From Arenicellales bacterium (GTDB lineage: Bacteria > Pseudomonadota > Gammaproteobacteria > Arenicellales > JAJDZL01): 64,000 nt of DNA. This document shows positions 4,141 to 47,476 of the stretch, one piece after another. The stretch covers positions 3,596,001 through 3,660,000 of the forward strand of contig OY282380.1 in assembly GCA_958295885.1 (NCBI GenBank), in the 5' to 3' direction. Position 1 is the stretch's first letter. Each line of letters opens with the position of its first letter. The notes under the pieces are model-generated. The model did no database searches. It worked only from the letters and a program-made list of their open reading frames with translations, and had not been told where the DNA came from. Made by a program: the position numbers and the translations under genes.

Positions 4141-4794
4141 CTATTTATTTGTTCCAATCAGCGCAGGCTCAGTTTCAGCTGTCAGTTTGCTCGGCAGCTC
4201 TTTGTGCACAGCATAAGATGACCACAAATCACCGAGATTGAAGCGAATAGCCTCAAAGGGCGGCAATGACACTGGCGCATCATCGAACAGCGCGTCAGTC
4301 TGCACCCATTCAGTGCCGCGCAGCTTAAATGCTTCCAACGATTGCACATTTGGGTCTACTAACCAAAGATAGCTGACACCCGCCCGCGCGTACGCCGCCC
4401 GCTTGCCGCCAAGATCAAGCTTTCTCGTTGATGGAGAAAGCACCTCGCACACCCAGTCCGGTGCCAGCTCAAAATAGGCAGTAATTGGAACCTCAGGCAT
4501 TCGCTGACGTCGCCATCCCGCGATGTCAGGCACCAAAATGTCCTTGCCTAGATGGAGTTCAGGTTCAAAGAGAATCCACCACCCGCCAGGGCCGCCGCGA
4601 CCGTAGTGAAAAGACGGACTGATGATGCCTACAAGTCCCGAACTGGCAATGGCATGAAGAGGAGCAGGCCTAGGGTGGGTGTAGAGTATGCCGTCGACAA
4701 TTTCTGCAACCTTGTGCGCCGGCGCATCCAGCACGTCCTGATAGGTAGCTTGAGGTGCATCTGTCTCGACTTTTTCTGCCTGCAATTTGTTCAT
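4141..4794 (-). CDS. Uma2 family protein, copy A
   Basis: A 217-residue Uma2 (DUF820) protein with the restriction-endonuclease-like PD-(D/E)XK fold. Family features are EIVDG (31-35), GGPGGWWILFEPELHLG, LVPDIAGWR (D90), PDWVCEVLSPSTRKLD (E117), GGKRAAYA (K131) and YLWLVDP. D90, E117 and K131 are the likely metal and catalytic residues. The start is the ATG conserved in all copies, preceded by a ttaaggt Shine-Dalgarno-like run, with a candidate -10 (tagaat) conserved about 40 bases upstream. Outside residues 52-68 it is closest to copy B, but inside that window it resembles C and D. The cellular role of Uma2 proteins is not established. Confidence 0.9.
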   Translation of the reverse strand: MNKLQAEKVETDAPQATYQDVLDAPAHKVAEIVDGILYTHPRPAPLHAIASSGLVGIISPSFHYGRGGPGGWWILFEPELHLGKDILVPDIAGWRRQRMPEVPITAYFELAPDWVCEVLSPSTRKLDLGGKRAAYARAGVSYLWLVDPNVQSLEAFKLRGTEWVQTDALFDDAPVSLPPFEAIRFNLGDLWSSYAVHKELPSKLTAETEPALIGTNK

Positions 4795-9088: not shown

Positions 9089-9742
9089 CTATTTGTTTGT
9101 TCCAATCAGCGCAGGCTCAGTTTCAGCTGTCAGTTTGCTCGGCAGCTCTTTGTGCACAGCATAAGATGACCACAAATCACCGAGATTGAAGCAGATTGCC
9201 TCAAAGGGCGGCAACGACACTGACGCATCATCGAACAGCGTGTCAATCAGCACCCATTCAGTGCCGCGCAGCTTAAATGCTTCCAACGATTGAACATTTG
9301 GATCTACTAACCAAAGATAGCTGACTCCCGCCCGGGCGTACGCCGCCCGCTTACCGCCAAGATTAAGCTTTCGCGTCGATGGAGAAAGCACCTCGCACAC
9401 CCAGTCCGGTGCCAGCTCAAAATAGGCAGTAATTGGAGCCTCAGGCATTCGCTGACGTTGCCATCCCGCGATGTCAGGCACCAAAATGTCCTTGCCTAGA
9501 TGGAGTTCAGGTTCAAAGAGAATCCGCCACCCGCCAGGACCGCCATTACCGAACTCAAAAGGCGGGCCGATTAAAATTACAAGCCTCGAACGGGCAATGG
9601 CATGAAGAGGAGCAGGCCTAGGGTGGGTGTAGAGTATGCCGTCGACAATTTCTGCAACCTTGTGCGCCGGCGCATCCAGCACGTCCTGATAGGTAGCCTG
9701 AGGTGAATCTGTCTCGACTATTTCCGCCTGAAATTTGTTCAT
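9089..9742 (-). CDS. Uma2 family protein, copy B
   Basis: 217 residues, very close to copy A (shared AYARAGVSYLWLVDPNVQS and KELPSKLTAETEPALIGTNK). The candidate catalytic residues D90, E117 and K131 are kept; KLDLGG has become KLNLGG. In the window 52-68 it reads RLVILIGPPFEFG, unlike A but like copy E (RLVILIGPPFDFG), which points to gene conversion or cassette-like exchange. Its upstream flank contains a 142-bp MITE-like insertion 71 bases from the start codon, which could separate or replace promoter elements. Confidence 0.9.
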   Translation of the reverse strand: MNKFQAEIVETDSPQATYQDVLDAPAHKVAEIVDGILYTHPRPAPLHAIARSRLVILIGPPFEFGNGGPGGWRILFEPELHLGKDILVPDIAGWQRQRMPEAPITAYFELAPDWVCEVLSPSTRKLNLGGKRAAYARAGVSYLWLVDPNVQSLEAFKLRGTEWVLIDTLFDDASVSLPPFEAICFNLGDLWSSYAVHKELPSKLTAETEPALIGTNK

Positions 9743-13835: not shown

Positions 13836-14483
13836 TTATGTTCCAATCAGCTCGGACTCAGATTTAATCGTCAGCTTGCTTGGCTGCTCTTGGTGAACAG
13901 CATGCGGCAGCCACAAATCACCGAGATTGAAACTGATCGCCTCAAACGGCGGCAACGAAACTGGCGCATCATCAAACAGCGTGTCTATCAGTACCCATTC
14001 CGTGCCGCACAACTGAAATGCTTCCAACGATTGAACAATTGGGTCTGCTAACCATAGGTAGCTGACACCCTCGCGGGCGTACACCGCTCGCTTGCCGCCA
14101 AGATCAAGCTTTCGGGTTGAAGGGGAAAGTACCTCGCACACCCAGTCTGGAGCCAACGTGCAGTAGGCTCCGGTCGGAAACACGGGCACTCGCTTACGTC
14201 GCCATCCTGCGATGTCAGGCACCAAAATGTCCTCGCTCAGATGGAGTTCTGGTTCGTCAACAATCCACCAGCCGCCAGGTCCGCCGCGACCGTAGTGAAA
14301 AGACGGATTGATGATTCCTCCAAGCCCAGAACTGGCAATGGCATGACGAAGGGCTGGTCTGGGGTGAGTGTATAGCGTTCCACCGACAATCTCCGCAACC
14401 ATGTGCGGCGGTGCATCTAGCACATCCTGATAGGTCGCATGAGAAGAAGTTTCAGCTACGCTGACTGCATGAGATTTTTTCAT
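13836..14483 (-). CDS. Uma2 family protein, copy C
   Basis: 215 residues from the ATG at 14481-14483, preferred over an in-frame ATG 33 bases upstream because it matches the start of copy E (MKKSHA). First unit of a tandem triplet with D and E, which share YCTLAPDWVCEVLSPSTRKL and YLWLADPIVQSLEA. Candidate catalytic residues D90, E117 and K131 are kept. The window 52-68 reads GLGGIINPSFHYGRGG, matching A and D. About 30 C-terminal residues differ from D and E (SKLTIKSESELIGT). Confidence 0.9.
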   Translation of the reverse strand: MKKSHAVSVAETSSHATYQDVLDAPPHMVAEIVGGTLYTHPRPALRHAIASSGLGGIINPSFHYGRGGPGGWWIVDEPELHLSEDILVPDIAGWRRKRVPVFPTGAYCTLAPDWVCEVLSPSTRKLDLGGKRAVYAREGVSYLWLADPIVQSLEAFQLCGTEWVLIDTLFDDAPVSLPPFEAISFNLGDLWLPHAVHQEQPSKLTIKSESELIGT

Positions 14484-14958
14484 TGTTTCAAATACCTTAA
14501 AAGCGTACTGACACAATTTTAGTCCATCGGTGCGCGGTGAATCAAACGGTACGGCTTTAATGTCTCACTTCGCATCGGGTTTCGTATTCAGCAAATTCAA
14601 AAGCTGCACTCCGACTGTCGTGAAAAGCGGTTCTGTCTATTGGCTTGGAGTCGCACACGAAAAAACACATCAGATTAAACGCCAGTATCTTATACGGCAG
14701 TCAGTTAGTTTTCGGTGGACGCGGAAGTAAAACAATTCACACCTTATCGGAACTGCACTTTCGATTCACATTGCACTGAACATCAAAAACGTAACTGCGC
14801 CGGTGGGTGTTGGAGCGTTGAGAATATCAATCTTCGTACCATGAAAATGTCACTCAACCGTGACAAATCGATCTCAAATCCGCGAGTTCACAGTCGTCAA
14901 TTTAAAAGGAACGACTCAAAAATAATAACTACAAGGTTTGAGCCACTGAAAGCTAGTT
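14484..14958. repeat. Tandem unit junction between Uma2 copies C and D
   Basis: The upstream flank of C passes directly into the downstream flank of D. 14517-14655 is almost identical to 15640-15778 beside copy D. No gene is supported. Confidence 0.75.
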
Positions 14959-15606
14959 TTATGTTTCAATCAGCTCGGGCTCAGCTTCAGCCGTCAGCTT
15001 GCTTGGCTGCTCTTGGTGAACAGCATGCGGCAGCCACAAATCACCGAGATTGAAACTGATCGCCTCAAATGGCGGCAGCGAAACTGGTGCGTCATTGAAC
15101 AGCGTATCTATCAGCACCCACTGAGTGCCGCACAACTTAAATGCTTCCAGCGATTGAACAATTGGGTCTGCCAACCATAGGTAGCTGACACCTTCGCGGG
15201 CATACGCCACCCGCTTGCCGCCAAGATCAAGCTTTCGGGTTGAAGGGGAAAGTACCTCGCACACCCAGTCTGGAGCCAACGTGCAGTAGGCTCCGGTCGG
15301 AAACACGGGTATTCGCTCACGTCGCCAACCTGCAAGGTCGGGTACCAAAATGTCCTCGCCCAGATGGAGTTCTGGTTCGCCAAGAATCCACCAGCCGCCA
15401 GGTCCTCCGCGACCGTAGTGAAATGACTGATTGATGATGCCTCCAAGCCCCAAACTGGCAATGGCATGACGAAGGGCTGGTCTGGGGTGAGTGTATAGCG
15501 TTCCACTGACAATCTCCGCAACCATGTGCGGCGGTGCATCTAGCACATCCTGATAGGTCGCATGAGAAGAAGTTTCAGCTACGCTGACTGCATGAGATTT
15601 TTTCAT
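14959..15606 (-). CDS. Uma2 family protein, copy D
   Basis: 215 residues, start chosen as for copy C. It differs from C at few positions in the N-terminal two-thirds but shares its C-terminus (EAEPELIET) with copy E, so it looks like a C/E mosaic or an intermediate. D90, E117 and K131 are present. The window 52-68 reads GLGGIINQSFHYGRGG. It repeats copy C at a spacing of 1123 bases. Confidence 0.9.
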   Translation of the reverse strand: MKKSHAVSVAETSSHATYQDVLDAPPHMVAEIVSGTLYTHPRPALRHAIASLGLGGIINQSFHYGRGGPGGWWILGEPELHLGEDILVPDLAGWRRERIPVFPTGAYCTLAPDWVCEVLSPSTRKLDLGGKRVAYAREGVSYLWLADPIVQSLEAFKLCGTQWVLIDTLFNDAPVSLPPFEAISFNLGDLWLPHAVHQEQPSKLTAEAEPELIET

Positions 15607-16080
15607 TGTTTCACATACCTTAAAAGCGTACTGACACAATTTTAGTCCATCGGTGCGCGGTGAATCAAACGGTACGGCTTTAATGTCTCACTTCGCATCG
15701 GGTTTCGTATTCAGCAAATTCAAAAGCTGCACTCCGACTGTCGTGAAAAGCGGTTCTGTCTATTGGCTTGGAGTCGCACTAGAAGAAACACATCATCTTA
15801 AATACCAAGGTCTAATACAGCAATCAGCTGGTTTTCGGTGAGCGCGGAAGTAAAGAATTCAAACCTTCTCGGACCTGCACTTTCAATTCACATTACACTG
15901 AACACCAAAAACGTAATTGTGCCGGTCGGTGTTGGAACTTTGAAACTATCGATCTTTGCGCCATGAAAACATCAATCAGGGGTGAAACATCGATCTCAAA
16001 TCCGCGAATTCACAGTAATCAATTCAAAAGGAACAAATCAAAAGCAATAACTACAAGGTTTTTGCCACTGAAAGTTAGTT
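15607..16080. repeat. Tandem unit junction between Uma2 copies D and E
   Basis: Same structure as the C-D junction: upstream flank of D, then tttcggtgagcgcggaagta, then the downstream flank of E with cattacactgaacaccaaaa. No gene is supported. Confidence 0.75.
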
Positions 16081-16728
16081 TTATGTTTCAATCAGCTCGG
16101 GTTCAGCTTCAGCCGACAGCTTGCTTGGCTGCTCTTGGTGAACGGCATGCGGCAGCCACAAATCACCGAGATTGAAACTGATCGCTTCAAAGGGCGGCAG
16201 CGATACCGTCGCATCATTGAACAGCGTGTCAATCACCACCCACTGAGTGCCGCTCAGCTCAAGTGCTTCCAGCGATTGAACAATTGGGTCTGCCAACCAT
16301 AGGTAGCTGACACCTTCGCGGGCATACGCCACCCGCTTGCCGCCAAGATCAAGCTTTCGGGTTGAAGGGGAAAGTACCTCGCACACCCAGTCTGGAGCCA
16401 ACGTGCAGTAGGCTCCGGTCGGAAACACGGGTACTCGTTCACGTCGCCATCCTGCAATGTCAGGCACCAAGATGTCCTTGCCCAGATGAAGTTCTGGCTC
16501 GAAGACAATCCGCCAGCCGCCAGGACCGCCATAACCAAAGTCAAAAGGTGGGCCAATTAAAATCACAAGCCTCGAACTGGCTATGGCATGAGGAAGGGCT
16601 GGTCTGGGTTGAGTGTATAGCTTGCCACCGACAATTTCCGCAACCATGTGCGGCGGTGCATCAAGCACATCCTGATAGGTCGCATGAGAAGAAGCTGCAG
16701 TCGCTTTGGCTGCATGTGATTTTTTCAT
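16081..16728 (-). CDS. Uma2 family protein, copy E
   Basis: 215 residues, third unit of the triplet (spacing 1122 bases from D). It shares most of the C-terminal half with D but in the window 52-68 reads RLVILIGPPFDFGYGG, almost the version in copy B 7 kb away. It also has GGWRIVFEPELHLGKD where C and D have GGWWI and DEPE or GEPE. Candidate catalytic residues are intact. Confidence 0.9.
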   Translation of the reverse strand: MKKSHAAKATAASSHATYQDVLDAPPHMVAEIVGGKLYTQPRPALPHAIASSRLVILIGPPFDFGYGGPGGWRIVFEPELHLGKDILVPDIAGWRRERVPVFPTGAYCTLAPDWVCEVLSPSTRKLDLGGKRVAYAREGVSYLWLADPIVQSLEALELSGTQWVVIDTLFNDATVSLPPFEAISFNLGDLWLPHAVHQEQPSKLSAEAEPELIET

Positions 16729-19549: not shown

Positions 19550-20203
19550 TTACTGCGATGTTTCAATTGACTCGGGGCCAGCTTCATTTGTCGGCTTGCT
19601 CGGCAGCTCTTCGTGCACGGCAGGCGGTGGCCACAAATCACTGAGATTGAAACTGATCGCTTCAAATGGCGGCAGCGAAACGGGCGCATCATCAAACAGC
19701 GTGTCGATCAGCACCCATTCAGTACCGTGCAGCTTAAATGCTTCCAGCGAGCGGGCATCTGGATCTACCAACCATAGGTAGCTGACACCCTCGCGGGCGT
19801 ACACCGCTCGCTTGCCGCCAAGATCAAGCTTTCGCGTCAGCGGGGAAAGCACCTCGCACGCCCAGTCAGGAGCCCACGTGAAGTAGGCTCCGCTCGGAAA
19901 CACAGGCATTCGCTCACGTCGCCATCCTGTGTAGTTAGGCACCACGATGTCCTCGCCCAGATGAATTTCTGGTTCTCTAAGAATCCACCACCCGCCAGGA
20001 CCGCCGTCACCGAAATGAAAAGGCCTACCGATCAGACTCCCAAGCCCAGAACCTGCTAAGGCATAAAGAGGGGCAGGTCTAGGCTGGATGTAGAGTTTGC
20101 CCTCGACAATTTCTGCAACCTTGTGCGGTGGCGCATCCAGCACGTCCTGATAGGTCGCTCGGGAAGAAGCAGCAGCCGATTTGACTGCACGCGATTTGTT
20201 CAT
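19550..20203 (-). CDS. Uma2 family protein, copy F (candidate catalytic Asp replaced by Asn)
   Basis: 217 residues, convergent with the FMN-binding gene. Closest to copy H (shared LYIQPRPAPLYA, REPEIHLGEDIVV, EVLSPLTRKLD). Where most copies have LVPDIAGWR this has VVPNYTGWR, so the candidate metal-binding Asp90 is Asn; E117 and K131 remain. The window 52-68 reads GLGSLIGRPFHFGDGG. The frame is intact, so a non-cleaving role is possible. Confidence 0.88.
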   Translation of the reverse strand: MNKSRAVKSAAASSRATYQDVLDAPPHKVAEIVEGKLYIQPRPAPLYALAGSGLGSLIGRPFHFGDGGPGGWWILREPEIHLGEDIVVPNYTGWRRERMPVFPSGAYFTWAPDWACEVLSPLTRKLDLGGKRAVYAREGVSYLWLVDPDARSLEAFKLHGTEWVLIDTLFDDAPVSLPPFEAISFNLSDLWPPPAVHEELPSKPTNEAGPESIETSQ

Positions 20204-28986: not shown

Positions 28987-29640
28987 TTATTTTAATGTTT
29001 CAGTCGGCTCGGGCTCAGTTCCAGCTGTCGGCTTGCTTGGCAGCTCTTGGTGCACAGCGTGCGGCGGCCATAAATCACCGAGATTGAAACGTATGGCATC
29101 AAAGGGAGGCAGGGAAACAGGCGCATCATCAAACAGCGCGTCGATCAGCGCCCAGTGAGTGCCACGTAACTTGAATGCTTCCAGCGAACGGGCATCTGGG
29201 TCTATCAACCAAAGAAAGTTGACGCCCTCTCGGGCGTACGCCGCCCGCTTCCCGCCAAGATCAAGCCTTCGCGTCGATGGAGAAAGCACCTCGCACACCC
29301 AGTCTGGAGCCAGCTCAAAATAGGCAGTAATTGGAGCCTCAGGCATTCGCTGACGTCGCCATCCTGCGATGTCAGGCACCAAAATGTCCTCGCTCAGATG
29401 GAGTTCTGGTTCGTCAAGAATCCACCACCCGCCAGGACCACCATAACCGAAATCAAAAGGCGAGCAAATTAACCCCCCAAGTCTCGAACTGGCTATGACA
29501 TGAAGAGGGGCAGGTCTAGGGTGGGTGTAGAGCTTGCCGTTGACAACTTCTGCAACCTTGTGCGGCGGTGCATCCAGTACATCCTGATAGGTCGCCCGAG
29601 GTGAATCTGTCCCGACTTTTGCTACCTGCGATTCATTCAT
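28987..29640 (-). CDS. Uma2 family protein, copy G
   Basis: 217 residues, nearly identical to copy I over the gene and about 480 bases of downstream flank. The striking exception is residues 52-68, RLGGLICSPFDFGYGG here against GLGGLIGMPFHFGVGG in I. Candidate catalytic residues are kept (LVPDIAGWR, CEVLSPSTRRLD, GGKRAAYA). The N-terminal 12 residues also vary (NESQVAKVGTDSPRA). Intact. Confidence 0.9.
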   Translation of the reverse strand: MNESQVAKVGTDSPRATYQDVLDAPPHKVAEVVNGKLYTHPRPAPLHVIASSRLGGLICSPFDFGYGGPGGWWILDEPELHLSEDILVPDIAGWRRQRMPEAPITAYFELAPDWVCEVLSPSTRRLDLGGKRAAYAREGVNFLWLIDPDARSLEAFKLRGTHWALIDALFDDAPVSLPPFDAIRFNLGDLWPPHAVHQELPSKPTAGTEPEPTETLK

Positions 29641-31041: not shown

Positions 31042-31695
31042 TTACTTCGAAGTTTCAATTGACTCGGGTCCAGTTTCAGTTGTCGGTTTGCTGGGCAGCT
31101 CTTTGTGCGCGGCAGGCGGCGGCCATAAATCACCGAGATTGAAACTGATCGCTTCAAATGGCGGCAGCGAAACTGGCACATCATCAAACAGTGTGTCGGT
31201 CAGCACCCATTCAGTACCGCGCAGCTTAAATGTTTCCAGCGAGCGGACATCTGGATCTACCAACCATAGGTAGCTGACACCCTCGCGGGCGTACACCGCC
31301 CGCTTGCCGCCAAGGTCAAGCTTTCGCGTCAGCGGGGAAAGTACCTCGCACGCCCAGTCAGGAGCCAACGTGCAGTAGGCTCCGGTCGGAAACACAGGCA
31401 CTCGCTCACGGCGCCATCCTGTGCAGTTGCGCACCACGATGTCCTCGCCCAGGTGGATTTCTGGTTCTCTAAGAATCCACCACCCGCCAGGTCCGCCGTC
31501 ACCTAAATCAAAAGGCATACCGATCAGACTCCGAAGTCTGGAACTGGCGAAGGCATAAAGAGGGGCAGGTCTAGGCTGGATGTAGAGCTTGCCGTCGACA
31601 ATCTCCGCAACCTTGTGAGGCGGCGCATCCAGCACATCCTGGTAGGTCGCTTGGGAAGAAGCAGCAGCCGACTTGACTGCATGCGATTTGTTCAT
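31042..31695 (-). CDS. Uma2 family protein, copy H (candidate catalytic Asp replaced by Asn)
   Basis: 217 residues, closest to copy F (LYIQPRPAPLYA, REPEIHLGEDIVV). The PD motif is VVRNCTGWR, losing both Pro89 and Asp90. The sequence LAPDWACEVLSPLTRKLD and K131 are kept. It also shares FPTGAYCTLAPDW with the C-D-E group, where F has FPSGAYFTWAPDW, a further sign of mosaicism. The window 52-68 reads RLRSLIGMPFDLGDGG. Intact frame. Confidence 0.88.
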   Translation of the reverse strand: MNKSHAVKSAAASSQATYQDVLDAPPHKVAEIVDGKLYIQPRPAPLYAFASSRLRSLIGMPFDLGDGGPGGWWILREPEIHLGEDIVVRNCTGWRRERVPVFPTGAYCTLAPDWACEVLSPLTRKLDLGGKRAVYAREGVSYLWLVDPDVRSLETFKLRGTEWVLTDTLFDDVPVSLPPFEAISFNLGDLWPPPAAHKELPSKPTTETGPESIETSK

Positions 31696-38947: not shown

Positions 38948-39601
38948 TTATTTTAATGTTTCAGTCAGCTCGGGCTCAGCTCCAGCTGTCGGCTTGCTTG
39001 GCAGCTCTTGGTGCACAGCGTGCGGCGGCCATAAATCACCGAGATTGAAACGTATGGCATCAAAGGGAGGCAGGGAAACAGGCGCATCATCAAACAGCGT
39101 GTTGATCAGCGCCCAGTGAGCGCCGCGTAACTTGAATGCTTCCAGCGAACGGGCATCTGGATCTATCAACCAAAGAAAGTTGACGCCCTCTCGGGCGTAC
39201 GCCGCCCGCTTCCCGCCAAGATCAAGCCTTCGCGTCAATGGAGAAAGCACTTCGCACACCCAGTCTGGAGCCAGCTCAAAATAGGCAGTAATTGGGGCCT
39301 CAGGCATTCGCTGACGTCGCCATCCTGCGATGTCAGGCACCAAAATGTCCTCGCCCAGATGGAGTTCTGGTTCGTCAAGAATCCACCACCCGCCAGGACC
39401 ACCTACACCAAAATGAAAAGGCATGCCGATCAGGCCCCCAAGCCCAGAACTGGCTATGACATGAAGAGGGGCGGGTCTAGGGTGGGTGTAGAGCTTGCCG
39501 TTGACGACTTCTGCAACCTTGTGTGGCGGCGCATCCAGAACATCCTGATAGGTCGCCCGAGGTGAATCTGTCCCGACTTTTGCTGCATGCGATTCATTCA
39601 T
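38948..39601 (-). CDS. Uma2 family protein, copy I
   Basis: 217 residues, near twin of copy G except in residues 52-68 (GLGGLIGMPFHFGVGG) and scattered positions such as SPLTRRLD. Candidate catalytic residues D90, E117 and K131 are intact. Its upstream flank is interrupted by a group II intron at about 39690-40600, so only about 90 bases of native sequence remain in front of the start codon. Confidence 0.9.
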   Translation of the reverse strand: MNESHAAKVGTDSPRATYQDVLDAPPHKVAEVVNGKLYTHPRPAPLHVIASSGLGGLIGMPFHFGVGGPGGWWILDEPELHLGEDILVPDIAGWRRQRMPEAPITAYFELAPDWVCEVLSPLTRRLDLGGKRAAYAREGVNFLWLIDPDARSLEAFKLRGAHWALINTLFDDAPVSLPPFDAIRFNLGDLWPPHAVHQELPSKPTAGAEPELTETLK

Positions 39602-42290: not shown

Positions 42291-43523
42291 TCAAATTTTG
42301 TCCAACTCTGCAGCTGGAATTATCAGGTGTAACTCACTGTCGTCAATTAGACGGTACTCCGGGAATTTTCCAGTCAATTTTTTCGTTTCCTCTCGAATTA
42401 TTGGAACGTCATCGCCTCGACGATCCATCATGTATGAGCGACCTAGTTCGGTCGATGTTGGGCAGCGGGCAAGTAGCGAAACAATTGCCTCGTTACGACA
42501 GAATTGTCGCAAGTGCAAATTATCCGGAGATAGCGTATTGGGAATGCCACCTGGTACGCACAGCTCAATTCGGTTTCGAAACATATGAAATCTTATTCGT
42601 GTGCCGGCCATTGAGTAATCACGATGTGCAACTGCGTTAACCAATGCTTCAAACAGAGCACGCTTGCTGTACTGGGAACGTTCGGTTCTACGAATTTGCT
42701 TGGTTGCTTGTGTGCGCATGTTTCGCATTGCGAAGTAGAGAGTTTCGTTGACTTGCTCATCTAGAGGTCCTGAAATATCTTGAGCGTCATACTGATAATT
42801 GATGTCATCTCGCTCGCCTTTGTAGTGGACAGCTTGAATCTGTGCGTGAGGAAGCCACTTTTGAGGCGATTTTGTGCATAAAAGAACTCCCGCGACAGTC
42901 AAGCGAGTAATTCCGGCATCGTCATCTGCTGCAATTCCTAACTTTTTTGCATTAATTTCGGTTAAATTTAGATATTCTCTTAAAAATCGGTTCGTTTGAA
43001 GTTCGTCAAGGTCAGAAAGCGATGTGCGAGGTACACTAAATTCATCGAATTGAATCAGCCGCATTTGATTGCGTTCCTGAAATAGTCGAGCTACGCTTTC
43101 GGCAGACAATTTCCGCTTAGTGTCTCCGAATCGTCGAAAGAAAACACCTGATACAGAATGTACATAGAGACTACGCTCAACTTCGACGCAAATGACCGCA
43201 ACATCATTGCCAATGCTATTTGGCAGCTCGAATTTCTGAAAGAAAATTTCAAGTGAGGGTTCAATCAAATCCTTACAAATATCTCGAACCCAAATTTGCA
43301 CAATGTCTAGTTTACCAAAAGGGATTCCAACTATTTCTCTAGTTTCATCATCTACACCTAACACGAGCGTGCCCCCTCTCCCATTCGCAAAAGCCGTTAA
43401 CTCTTCGGCTAATTTTTGGCGATTTGGAGCGTTTACGCGAGAGCCTGCAAATAAAACCTGCTTTAGCTCGAATGTAGAATCTTCACCCAGCCGGATACGC
43501 CGAATTAGTTCCGATTCAGTCAA
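42291..43523 (-). CDS. AlbA_2 (Schlafen-like) domain ATP-binding protein
   Basis: 410 residues. The N-terminal AlbA_2 domain has EDSTFELKQVLFAG, ELTAFANGRGGTLVLGVDD and VFFRRFGDTKRKLS. The second half matches RecG-like/HATPase proteins of this architecture, with LFEALVNAVAHRDYSMAG and IELCVPGGIPNTLSPDNL. Such proteins are common in defence islands and are thought to act on nucleic acid. The start overlaps the end of the PHP-ATPase gene by four bases, so the two form an operon. This gene is intact although its partner is broken. Confidence 0.85.
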   Translation of the reverse strand: MTESELIRRIRLGEDSTFELKQVLFAGSRVNAPNRQKLAEELTAFANGRGGTLVLGVDDETREIVGIPFGKLDIVQIWVRDICKDLIEPSLEIFFQKFELPNSIGNDVAVICVEVERSLYVHSVSGVFFRRFGDTKRKLSAESVARLFQERNQMRLIQFDEFSVPRTSLSDLDELQTNRFLREYLNLTEINAKKLGIAADDDAGITRLTVAGVLLCTKSPQKWLPHAQIQAVHYKGERDDINYQYDAQDISGPLDEQVNETLYFAMRNMRTQATKQIRRTERSQYSKRALFEALVNAVAHRDYSMAGTRIRFHMFRNRIELCVPGGIPNTLSPDNLHLRQFCRNEAIVSLLARCPTSTELGRSYMMDRRGDDVPIIREETKKLTGKFPEYRLIDDSELHLIIPAAELDKI

Positions 43524-46233
43524 TTTTCGTTCCCTTCCACTAGCATAATGCGACGATAGCGATCTCTAAACGCGTCCCGCCCACCTTCCATAACACGACA
43601 GATTTCGTCTCGAACTTTCTGCTCTTGAAGTCCACCCATACAAGTTATTCTCGTCTCTCCAGATCGAGCTTCAAAAGATAGAACGAGCTCCGCGTCACCA
43701 TGCACCACGATGTTCGGATTATGAGTGACGACTAAAATTTGACGAGAAACTTTTTTAGCTTTTATTCGCCTAACCACTAGCTCGTAAATTAGTGCATTAT
43801 CAAGATCGTCTTCTGGCTGATCAAGATTTATAGGCTCTGACCCGTAGCCGAGCACAAAGTCAAGTAAAGCAGCTGTCTGTTGACCTGGTGACCCTTGCCC
43901 AAGTGGAGTAATCGAAGCATTGGAATCTCCCATTTTCTTCCTTATACCAGCTTCAACCTTGTCTTCAGGGCAATAGAGTTCAAGATGATCAATCTGTTCT
44001 GGATTGAGATTTCTAAAGGCTTGTACGAATCGTCTATCCTTAACATCCCATGCGCTGTCATCACCTTCATGAAAGCTTCGGAGGTTTTTGACAACCAAAT
44101 CAAATCCATTCCAATTCCACGATTGGCTATTCTGTTGTTTTACTTTATTTTCAATCTCCATATAGTCTCTATCAAATCTATCAATAGCAAATGTATTTCG
44201 TAAAATACTCTTGAGGCCATCATGATTATTACTTGTTTTTATGTCAATTTGTACCAATTTGCCCGAATTTTCTCGAACGAATTTACGCCGATTCAAACTC
44301 AGCTGATATCGAATATTGCGGTATGACTCAAGTATTTTCTCAGCATCTGATTCATGGGCATCAGCCAAAGATAATTTTTCCTTTATTACAGTAATCTCTT
44401 TGTCTAGTGCAGCGAGTCGATTGACCAAGTCACTATATTCGTTCGGATTTCTCACGTTCTCCAGCACAAGTTTCTCTCTGACTTTCTGATAATCAACTTC
44501 ACTTTGATGAACAATGCCTGCCCATTTCTCCAAATCTGGACCATCAAACAGTTGCTGTAGTTATTCTCGCGAACGATCGACGGATTGTTGAATTTCAATC
44601 TTGAGCATTCTAATGATGCTACTTAATTTGGAATGAACACGGCTGAGTTCTGGAACTGCTTTGCCGTCAACTAAATTTAAGTCAGCAACCTCGATATCCT
44701 TAACAACGTTCGTTATGTTATTAATTGAATCCAAAGTGTCATCTTTTACTGCTTGCCAAGCTCTATTTTGGCTCTCCCGGATACGGTATTCTCTTAGTGC
44801 GTTAGAATGACCGCTTTTTTGGAGTACCATTAGTTTGCGCTGTATTTCAGAACGCTCCGCTTCACGGTCAGGCAAGATTTTCCCTTGAGCGGTCAACTCC
44901 CGCGCCCTTGCGCGTAAAGCCAAGTAAGATGCTTTTTTCTGTTCCATTTTCTACCAAGCTGCTTTTGCGTCGACTTCTTTCGAATCGTCAATTACGGTCA
45001 ACAACGCATTAGGGTCTTGAGCCAGTTGAAACAATTGTTTTTGGCTGAATATTCGTACCGGAAAACGATTTTCAACATCTCCTTTTTCTTCGATAACATC
45101 GTCCCCATCAAGACGACTAATGGGTGACATTGATCCGTCGTTGTTCCACGAGAGCTGGAATCTTTCTCCATTCTTGCGATAAATGACTTTAACGATAGAA
45201 TCGGCCGTAAGAAGTCCTTCATCCTTACGAAATTCCGGAATTTTAAAACGTTGATCGAATGTGTTCTTCAATTCCGTAAATTTGTCAAGCTCTGAATCCC
45301 GACGGAATGTTATCCGACAAAAGTCAATCAAGCTGGATTTGCCTGTTCCACGGCCACCAATGATTGAATTGAACCAGGGGTTTAACGGAACAATAAACTT
45401 TTTGCTTCTTCCTTGGTACCTGGCTTTTTCAATTTGAATGCTTTCAATTGCGAGGTCTGGATATGTATTTGGGTTGGGTCCTGTTTCGTTGTTAATCGGT
45501 TTCAAAGAATCCTCGCCATCAAGCAAAGCGAGACGCAGTCCTTCAGCATTGGGAGTGGTCATCTTCACCCACGTATATCGCCGTCCGAGGTCGTGAAGCC
45601 CGTGAGCGTCAGAACAAAAAACTCGAGGAATTTTACGACCGACCTGAGGTAAGCCATTTAAGAAATTCTCGTCTTCGGGAGAAATAATTGGAGTGATTTC
45701 AACGGCAGTCAATCCTTCATGTTTTAGTACCGCTATTCTCTGTTCCCCTGCAATTTTGAGCACCCCTTTTTTTCATTGATATGGGCGCTGAGAAACAAGC
45801 CCTGAAAATTTTCGTCACGCGCTAAGTCCAAAATTTTCTCTACACTAAAATTTGTACGATTGGTTTTTGGCTCTTTAATGTTCTCACGAATTCCAAGCTG
45901 AGAAAGAACATAACTTACATCCTCAGCTGTACTCTGCGGGTCTAAAACCAGCAATAAATGCGTGCCGTCACTTGCTGTGATCTCAACACCTGGAAATATG
46001 ACTGGGCCAGTTAGGCCTTCAGCTGCTTGTTTGAGTAGATTCACTGCCTTTGCCGTATTGTGGTCAGTAATAGCGACGGCATCCAATTTGGCTTCTTGCG
46101 CAGCACTTATCCAACTTTTCCAATCAAAAGTTTCAAAGTCGGTTAGCGGTTTGAAGTCATAGGATGCTGGGGTATGTGTATGCAAGTCAAACCGCCACCA
46201 ACGAGAACCCGGCCAATTCCAAATGTCAGTCAA
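43520..46233 (-). pseudogene. TrlF-like PHP-domain SMC-type ATPase, broken by one frameshift and two nonsense codons
   Basis: Segments in order: a PHP phosphoesterase domain (WRFDLHTHTPASYDF, AVAITDHNT, FPGVEITASDGTHLLLV); frameshift at a 7-base A run (45767-45773 on the plus strand); FCSDAHGLHDLG; Walker A GGRGTGKSSLIDF; TAG at 44951-44953; a coiled-coil part; TAA at 44561-44563; a second coiled coil; the ABC-type signature GQGSPGQQTAALLDF; Walker B LDQPEDDLDN; and VVTHNPN. The total would be about 900 residues. Continuity of frame across both stops supports recent inactivation of one gene. TrlF-like proteins combine PHP nuclease and ATPase and occur in defence settings; exact function is unsettled. 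Confidence 0.85.
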
Positions 46234-47285
46234 TTTACTCTCCTGCAGTAAAGTTCAGAATAAATTCCACGTGATTCTTTCGCGACCACTTCCAAACTAT
46301 GAAATGGGCTTGGCGCAGCCGACCACATTTGTTATTTCCCGCACTCGTTGTGCGATAACAGCAGAGACAGCACCGCAGTTGAAGTGTTGATGATGACAGG
46401 AGTTCTGCGCATGTTCTGTAATTTGTTGATATGATAATGATAATTCAGGGAATAAATATATTTTACCTCAGTCTTTGGCACTTATTCCCGAGAGTCTCCG
46501 TTTGGACGTAACTGCTGGATAATTCTACCCCTTAATTCCAAAAGTTCGGTCAAAGCCGCCTTGCAATTCTTCTAAGAATTTATATCAATAAGATAAATAT
46601 TCATAAATGAAAAGAGCAGCAGCGCTGGCAAGTCAGCTCTTCAGATTAAACTGTCGTTCAGCCGTAAGACAAATGCAAAAAACGCCTCTTGGGAAAGTGT
46701 ATGCGACGACTAGGTGATTCAGCCGCTTTAAATTAAGCAGTCCGCTTTTCGGGGGGGGGGGGTAAGTAGTTTCGATGAAATCTAAGATTGATTCTCGTCG
46801 CCAGAACAAATGCACTCGTTTTTCGGTAAGGTAGAAGAAGATACTTCAAAAATTATTCAGGGTTTCCAGCATCTGCTGAAACGAAAAGAATCTGAGTTGC
46901 GATTTGAAAAGAGATGATGCAGGAAATAATTTGATTTCATTGGTGAAGGGTAATGAACGTCAGGCTTTCCACAAAGCATTATTAACGATAGAGACGGTTC
47001 AGATGGAAATTCCTGGACTGCCGCAAACCCGCAAAAATTATTTTCAGGGTCTGCCAATTGAATTGACTGAGGAAAGACTATCCAATTTCAAAAACTGCCT
47101 CAGGTCAATACAAGCGATTCAGCACTCGTATTCAGCAATCACTTGGGATGTGTAAAATTTGAGGGGAAACACCCGAATTTCAGGAAGCCGTACTGCCTCG
47201 CCTGATTTGTCGATTAATTCGCCTGCAAACGCCAAACCATTGCCCAACGATCAAAAGCGCAGGCAATGGTTTGAATTCATTCGAA
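46234..47285. other. Boundary region with a 12-base G run
   Basis: No gene is firmly supported. A run of 12 G lies at 46751-46762 inside a minus-strand frame of 60 codons. A plus-strand frame at 46904-47155 (NERQAFHKALLTIETVQMEI, GLPIELTEERLSNFKNC) looks protein-like but has no recognised family. This stretch separates the decayed region from the conserved one. Confidence 0.35.
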
Positions 47286-47360
47286 TGGTGGGCGCACCTG
47301 GGATTGAACCAGGGACCTCTTGCATGTCAAGCAAGTGCTCTCCCCCTGAGCTATGCGCCC
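47286..47360 (-). tRNA. tRNA-Val (GAC)
   Basis: On the minus strand the sequence begins gggcgcatagctcaggggga, has the anticodon stem cttgc/gcaag around loop ttgacat (anticodon GAC), a T arm cctgg-ttcaatc-ccagg, and acceptor end tgcgccc followed by discriminator A and an encoded CCA. All four stems pair. Confidence 0.95.
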
Positions 47361-47476
47361 AATCTGATCGCTGCATTGAGCTGGCAGATTCTGCAGTCAA
47401 CTTGCGGCGGTTTCAACTCAGAAATATATCACAAGCTGCATTCGGTCAAAATCGCAATCATGCGGTTTTTTGACGA

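What the first reader, a model, noticed from the sequence alone, without database searches (positions are those of the whole stretch)
42291..46233. Two-gene module: TrlF-like PHP-ATPase plus AlbA_2 ATP-binding protein
The genes overlap by four bases and would be cotranslated. The first is broken by a 7-A-run frameshift and two in-frame stops, the second is intact. The pairing of a PHP-SMC-like ATPase with a Schlafen-type AlbA_2 protein looks like a defence operon that may not be described as a unit.
Basis: partly seen in the sequence, partly recalled or inferred. Interest (0 to 1): 0.55.

Follow-up and report, generated by a model that had tools for sequence, protein, structure and literature searches.

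The report
Decayed TrlF–TrlG (TRL-type) gene pair
The window holds a broken copy of a widespread two-gene bacterial module, a nuclease/ATPase-type gene followed by a Schlafen-fold protein gene, that was already named in an insect-associated bacterium for stopping growth in the warmth and that looks, from its parts and company, like an antivirus device.

Summary
On the minus strand a TrlF/Ppl-family gene (PHP domain plus Rad50/SMC-like ATPase, 43520-46233) overlaps by four bases an open 410-aa gene (42291-43523) with AlbA_2 and HATPase_c_4 domains. TrlF is broken by a frame change at a seven-A run and by in-frame TAG and TAA. The pairing recurs: of 80 TrlF loci kept by a capped, similarity-ranked scan, 40 of the 76 with room downstream have this partner next door, under 16 phylum labels, and TrlF and TrlG distances agree (Mantel r 0.89, 0 of 5000 permutations). 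But the pair is not undescribed: it is trlF-trlG of the Photorhabdus TRL operon (2020), same two domains in TrlG, reported there for temperature-dependent growth arrest, not phage defence. TrlG has a Schlafen fold; the SLFN13-type triad is whole in 48 of 57, the window included. On IncC plasmids, and in an E. coli chromosome inside a Tn7-like element, the pair sits within type I restriction-modification genes. Most likely it is a two-protein immune/growth-arrest module whose window copy lost TrlF recently. Phage defence by the pair is inferred, not shown; a relevant preprint on bacterial Schlafens could not be read.

The parts
42291..43523 (-). trlG-like gene, open, 410 aa, TTG start
43107..43484 (-). 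SLFN_AlbA_2 domain (PF04326) of TrlG
   Evidence: residues 13-138 there, numbered without the first codon
43347..43484 (-). Schlafen-type acidic triad E14 (43482-43484), E19 (43467-43469), D59 (43347-43349)
42336..42605 (-). HATPase_c_4 domain (PF13749) of TrlG
   Evidence: histidine-kinase-like ATPase fold in the model
43520..43523 (-). four-base overlap of the TrlF stop and the TrlG start (TTGA)
43520..46233 (-). trlF pseudogene (PHP + SMC/Rad50-like ATPase), TTG start at 46233
45767..45773 (-). seven-A run at which the trlF reading frame changes
44951..44953 (-). in-frame TAG in trlF
44561..44563 (-). in-frame TAA in trlF
45602..46188 (-). PHP ligand-like motifs DLHTH (46174-46188), TDHN (46057-46068), GVE (45982-45990), SAHIN (45775-45789), CSDAH (45602-45616), all present
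45335..45358 (-). Walker A GGRGTGKS of TrlF
43799..43822 (-). Walker B DQPEDDLD of TrlF
47286..47360 (-). tRNA-Val(gac); kept beside uvrB in three same-genus genomes whose far side differs

Best explanation
Identity (about 0.95): a trlF-trlG pair of the TRL type in a gammaproteobacterial genome (same order as a genome that matches Ca. Spongiihabitans, Arenicellales by NCBI), in which trlF was broken recently and trlG is still open. Working of the intact module (about 0.5, inferred): TrlF, like its relative Ppl, uses an SMC/Rad50-like ATPase to recognise a DNA state made by infection or stress, and a PHP domain that may degrade DNA; TrlG, presumably made from the same mRNA, is an ATP-gated Schlafen-fold RNase whose activation stops translation and growth. 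Together they would arrest or kill the infected cell, and can also fire under heat, as reported for Photorhabdus. Shown here: anatomy, recurrence, co-inheritance, active-site residues, fold. Inferred: nuclease activities, physical coupling, phage trigger.
For: TrlF family by profile above cut-off; Ppl homology, and a review states that E. coli Ppl is a PHP 3'-5' ssDNA exonuclease with an NTPase domain (PMC12904381, passages). In the own order 15 of 18 with room, of 21 loci that I chose. Of 45 TrlG-like ORFs in 848 kb of the 80 loci, 40 lie in that slot and the other 5 in loci already paired; none in 32 control loci, partly overlapping, 163 kb in sum. TrlF/TrlG distance Mantel r 0.888, 0 of 5000 permutations; nearest neighbour the same in 34 of 52. 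TrlG model (pLDDT 87.9): rSAMD9 tRNase Z 10.8 (rmsd 3.6, 147 aligned), SLFN13 Z 10.1 (3.2, 119), histidine-kinase ATPase Z 8.5 (2.9, 121). Triad E14/E19/D59 aligned with SLFN13 E205/E210/D248; EED in 48 of 57. TrlF model resembles JetC/MukB/Rad50/SMC and a PHP phosphoesterase. Photorhabdus growth-arrest suppressors fall in TrlG; mapped to this family some hit conserved columns (S16, A44, R137, N344) and others do not. Pair within type I R-M genes on two IncC plasmids and as cargo of a Tn7-like element in E. coli.
Against: No phage assay of the pair was found. The Photorhabdus work reports growth control, and no trlF mutations among suppressors. Nine of 57 TrlG rows lack the full EED triad (two of them broken or cut rows); five have Q at position 19, including the Y. 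ruckeri and E. coli plasmid forms that carry most of the Photorhabdus wild-type residues, so RNase activity may be absent in part of the family. 36 of 76 TrlF have no TrlG. Relatives of the E. coli plasmid TrlG were found in 14 of 369 gammaproteobacterial genomes, with TrlF beside 5 of the 12 with room. All eight PHP ligand-like residues were seen in 41 of 54 paired TrlF rows, some of the rest being cut rows. The window's TrlG keeps 59 of 64 conserved columns, 11th lowest of 52 rows, so it may be drifting too.
Confidence: 0.6

Rival explanations
1. TrlFG is a growth regulator tied to temperature or starvation, not a defence system: TrlG, induced by heat, stops growth and TrlF modulates it.
For: Published phenotype of the TRL operon: induced at 36 C, growth arrest, suppressors in trlG (PMC7554251).
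Against: Scattered distribution under 16 phylum labels, plasmid and Tn7-like carriage and R-M company in one branch, Ppl homology. Heat arrest could be misfiring of a defence module.
Confidence: 0.25
2. TrlG is a nucleic-acid-binding regulator with a Schlafen fold and no RNase activity.
For: Nine of 57 TrlG rows lack the full triad; public annotation often names it RNA-binding domain-containing protein.
Against: EED triad in 48 of 57, window included; fold match to tRNase domains.
Confidence: 0.2
3. TrlF is the antitoxin of a constitutively toxic TrlG.
For: Overlapping genes and co-inheritance.
Against: TrlG stays open beside broken or nearly deleted TrlF in five loci of this order (window, L077, L197, L198, L201).
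Confidence: 0.07
4. The three TrlF breaks are assembly or sequencing errors and the gene is intact.
For: One lesion lies at a homopolymer; TrlF keeps 90 of 92 columns conserved in other paired TrlF, at the median of 52 rows.
Against: Two of three lesions are in-frame stop codons; other large genes of the window such as uvrB are open; a second TrlF in the same genome is also broken (L077).
Confidence: 0.1

Closest known systems
Photorhabdus TRL operon trlR-trlF-trlG (PMC7554251)
   Same: TrlF-family gene directly followed by a gene with PF04326 + PF13749; same order and strand
   Different: No trlR-like gene recognised upstream in the window (no Pfam match for four small ORFs at 46633-47473); TrlF is broken; the window's TrlG has the EED triad, unlike the plasmid forms that most resemble Photorhabdus TrlG at the published residues
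Ppl anti-phage protein (NF042955; PADLOC Ppl)
   Same: PHP + SMC-like ATPase; all four TrlF pieces match NF042955
   Different: Single gene (review passage); the window's best piece scores 179.8 bits against a cut-off of 1000; here a Schlafen-fold partner follows
Schlafen RNases fused to a minimal histidine kinase, linked to BREX (PMC12839542, passages)
   Same: Schlafen RNase plus C-terminal histidine-kinase-like domain
   Different: There linked to BREX-type loci; here linked to TrlF. The wHTH named there was not tested here
PARIS (AriA/AriB) and Wadjet (JetABCD)
   Same: ABC/SMC-type sensor ATPase coupled to a separate nuclease effector; the TrlF model matches JetC and AriA among others
   Different: Their effectors are Toprim nucleases (AriB: search listing; JetD recalled), not Schlafen; works-like only

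Membership tests
TrlF family AAA-like ATPase (NF045780) | profile score over 350 bits | tested here: met
   429.5 bits over profile 217-943 with two stops read through; N-terminal piece 113 bits
TrlF family AAA-like ATPase (NF045780) | a translatable full-length gene | tested here: not met
   frame change, TAG and TAA; a decayed member
TRL operon | trlG with PF04326 and PF13749 right after trlF, same strand | tested here: met
   paper's Figure 1 legend
TRL operon | small regulator gene trlR upstream of trlF | tested here: inconclusive
   no Pfam match for four small ORFs at 46633-47473; the paper finds all three genes in synteny only in Photorhabdus, V. anguillarum and pYR3
TRL operon | temperature-dependent growth arrest | not testable with these tools
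   needs culture
Ppl (NF042955) | profile score over 1000 bits | tested here: not met
   best piece 179.8 bits; pieces were scored apart
Schlafen-type RNase | AlbA_2/Schlafen-core fold | tested here: met
   PF04326; SLFN13 Z 10.1, rSAMD9 tRNase Z 10.8
Schlafen-type RNase | E/E/D catalytic triad as in SLFN13 E205/E210/D248 | tested here: met
   E14, E19, D59; residue offset of 13 between the PDB chain and the paper's numbering set by me
Schlafen-type RNase | RNA cleavage | not testable with these tools
   needs purified protein

The most novel reading that the evidence does not exclude
TrlF-TrlG is a widespread two-protein immune system in its own right: a Ppl-like PHP-SMC DNA sensor/nuclease tied to an ATP-gated Schlafen RNase, carried by plasmids and a Tn7-like element and in one branch set within R-M operons; and the temperature restriction reported for Photorhabdus is autoimmunity of that system set off by heat.
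Probability: 0.4. Interest if true: 0.6.

Novelty: new member of a known kind. Interest (0 to 1): 0.4.

Why it matters
It joins two lines of work that the passages read here do not connect (PMC12839542 has no hit for TrlF or Ppl): a growth-arrest operon of Photorhabdus and the Ppl/Schlafen antiphage proteins. If the join is right, bacterial Schlafen proteins of the histidine-kinase-ATPase type have a defined partner, and a reported temperature limit becomes a case of immune misfiring that can be tested in E. coli K-12. The window copy itself is a fossil and matters little.

Tried and rejected
Island ends: no second copy of the tRNA-Val 3' end in the window (24-base pattern, up to 3 mismatches) and only weak repeats, 85% or less, in 36-50 kb; insertion at this tRNA is only suggested by the differing flanks of three relatives.

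Neighbourhood as evidence of defence: one search found 146 neighbour ORFs of at least 150 aa in the 40 paired loci, 122 of them of at least 200 aa; I left out 20 of the 122 by hand (mostly to fit the size limit, also three TrlF/TrlG copies) and scanned 102. PADLOC and Pfam gave, in tables capped at 25 families, methyltransferases (5 with PF01555), DUF499 (3), HmaA/B/C (2/2/3) and restriction genes amid housekeeping genes. No control set was scanned, so this is weak. By phmmer with the two IncC cassettes' genes, type I R-M relatives lay in one paired locus of the own order (L090), in none of the 40, and in three unpaired loci (L102, L151, L165): R-M company is a feature of one branch.

Selective keeping of TrlG: five loci of this order have a broken or mostly deleted TrlF and an open TrlG; none of the 21 loci shows the reverse; but of the 10 further loci fetched, two have a broken TrlG (L200, L202) and five a TrlG-like gene without clear TrlF, the reverse occurs elsewhere (L123), and TrlF is the larger target. 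No claim made.

PHP residues as a mark of pairing: all eight in 41 of 54 paired and 20 of 43 unpaired or edge rows; classes are related by descent, so no inference.

Photorhabdus TrlG itself was not obtained; its substitutions were mapped through the E. coli and Y. ruckeri plasmid proteins, which carry the stated wild-type residue at 11 and 10 of 13 positions with offsets of 0 and -1 or -2 chosen by me; at one position (A75) the two do not fall in one column.

Long TrlF forms at G000:C1:4357811 and 4389557 and in G005 have no TrlG beside them and form their own branch. The tree is a quick one with long branches that meet, and one pair of rows (L113, L084) is the same sequence twice, also.
Full report
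What is there. The window lies at 3596001-3660000 of a 4.42-Mb, one-contig genome. On its minus strand a gene frame of the TrlF/Ppl kind runs from 46233 to 43520 and a second gene from 43523 to 42291; they share four bases, TTGA. The first is broken by a frame change at a run of seven A, by TAG at 44951-44953 and by TAA at 44561-44563; the second is open over 410 aa. Pieces of the first match TrlF_fam_ATP (NF045780) and Ppl (NF042955, PADLOC Ppl); read through its stops, the longer stretch scores 429.5 bits, over the family cut-off of 350. PHP ligand-like motifs, Walker A and Walker B are in place. The second has SLFN_AlbA_2 and HATPase_c_4.

Is TrlF really dead, and since when. Two of three lesions are stop codons, which a homopolymer error does not explain, and uvrB and other long genes of the window are open. 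The broken TrlF keeps 90 of 92 columns that at least 85% of the other paired TrlF share, the median for 52 rows; its identity to the nearest relatives (46-47%) is what the TrlG identity (57-60%) predicts, 176 other pairs with TrlG identity of 55-63% averaging 44%. So the loss looks recent. The open TrlG keeps 59 of 64 such columns, 11th lowest of 52, so it may be drifting as well. In the same genome another pair has a broken TrlF and open TrlG (L077) and a third is whole (L076). Of 10 further loci of the order fetched around TrlG-like genes, TrlF remnants of 37, 87 and 159 aa stand before an open TrlG in three (L197, L198, L201), two have a broken TrlG (L200 with a TrlF remnant, L202) and five have no clear TrlF.

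Is the pairing real. Of the 80, 4 end too near a contig edge; 40 of the other 76 have a TrlG-type ORF right downstream on the same strand, and 36 do not. The 40 include a weak one (L164), a cut one (L114), a broken one (L123) and two short ones (L124, L149). A start codon within -8 to +4 bases of the TrlF stop is available in 35 of the 40. Paired loci carry 16 phylum labels; many are metagenome bins. In the own order I chose 20 places plus the window: 15 paired, 3 unpaired with room, 3 with under 700 bases downstream. All 45 TrlG-like ORFs in 848 kb around the 80 TrlF lie in paired loci, 40 of them in the slot after the main TrlF; 32 control loci, partly overlapping, 163 kb in sum, have none. 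The label 'paired' is clustered on the TrlF tree (15 changes against 30.1 shuffled, 0 of 500 as low). TrlF and TrlG distances agree far beyond chance (Mantel r 0.888, 0 of 5000 permutations, largest 0.366; nearest neighbour the same in 34 of 52; two of 54 rows dropped as short). From the other side the bond is looser: relatives of the E. coli plasmid TrlG turned up in 14 of 369 gammaproteobacterial genomes (E <= 1e-40), and TrlF stood beside 5 of the 12 with room, one of them the own genome. The sample of 80 was ranked by likeness to a paired TrlF, so 40 of 76 is not a census.

What TrlG is. A model of the window's TrlG (36 sequences, mean pLDDT 87.9) matches 3lmm along its length (Z 23.4, though rmsd 18.4) and, domain by domain, SAMD9 tRNase (Z 10.8), SLFN13 (Z 10.1) and histidine-kinase ATPase domains (Z 8.5). 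Its E14, E19, D59 align with E205, E210, D248 of rat SLFN13, of which the paper reports that mutating any diminished activity and that E205A and E210A were inactive (PMC5862951, passages). All three are kept in 48 of 57 TrlG; of the other nine, two are broken or cut rows and five have Q at 19, among them the Y. ruckeri and E. coli plasmid forms. So an RNase is likely for the window's branch and doubtful for another.

What TrlF is. A model of the L129 TrlF (25 sequences, pLDDT 87.2) resembles JetC, MukB, Rad50 and SMC heads, AriA, and a PHP phosphoesterase. A 2026 review describes E. [quoted passage not shown]

What is known of the pair. Searching TrlF led to the Photorhabdus paper. Its TRL operon is trlR-trlF-trlG; TrlF is annotated as a histidinol phosphatase; TrlG has PF04326 at 14-128 and PF13749 at 298-365; expression rises at 36 C and growth stops; of 29 sequenced tolerant clones 19 had a SNP and one an insertion in trlG, the remaining isolates without a trlG mutation did not resume growth at 36 C after freezing, and no trlF mutation was seen (passages, sections 5 and 9, part 1 of section 10). 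Mapped to this family, several substitutions hit conserved columns (S16 inside the E-x4-E motif, A44, R137, N344) and several do not. The pair on pYR3 that the paper names was found here too. So the unit is in print; as a defence unit I did not find it in ten searches. PMC12839542 (passages) reports Schlafen RNases with a minimal histidine kinase near BREX loci and cites a preprint on bacterial Schlafens in phage defence, which is not held.

Context. On one E. coli IncC plasmid the order is hsdR-trlF-trlG-hsdS-AAA-hsdM, on a Citrobacter one hsdM-hsdS-trlF-trlG-hsdR. The first form is found in 38 of 5426 complete E. coli genomes, 52 of 55 places on chromosomes; in the one chromosome opened it is cargo of a Tn7-like element beside yhiM. 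Plasmids with a relative of the window's TrlG: 94 of 72,556; with a TrlF/Ppl relative: 1120. In the window the pair lies downstream of a tRNA-Val that follows uvrB; in three same-genus genomes uvrB-tRNA-Val is kept, and the 12-14 kb fetched on the far side is different and lacks the pair. No flanking repeat marks an element.

Judgement. The finding is a real, recent pseudogene of a known and widespread two-gene unit. The open and interesting point is whether the growth arrest of TRL and the antiphage action of Ppl are one thing.

Noticed in passing
window 4141-4794, 9089-9742, 13836-14516, 14959-15639, 16081-16728, 19550-20203, 28987-29640, 31042-31695, 38948-39601: Nine similar minus-strand ORFs of 215-226 aa (Uma2-like by recall, not scanned) are scattered through the first 40 kb: a local family expansion.
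   Followed up: no
L204 6035-16805 and L177 411-11181: A Tn7-like element in an E. coli chromosome and an IncC plasmid carry the same cassette: type I R-M genes with trlF, trlG and an extra AAA_13-type ATPase gene.
   Followed up: partly
L196 2480-6573: A TrlG-type gene follows a 941-aa SNF2-type helicase gene instead of TrlF, so the Schlafen-HATPase protein has other partners.
   Followed up: partly
L192 6822-8561; L193 7099-8839: Own-genome TrlG relatives without TrlF; the first has 580 aa with a C-terminal part that no Pfam model matches, the second is split over two frames.
   Followed up: partly
L079 4063-5343: About 1.2 kb downstream of a lone long-type TrlF of the own genome lies a protein with a sub-threshold HEPN_Apea match.
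   Followed up: no
L112, L106, L119: Further TrlG-like genes in tandem after a TrlF-TrlG pair; L106 also has a second TrlF-TrlG pair.
   Followed up: no
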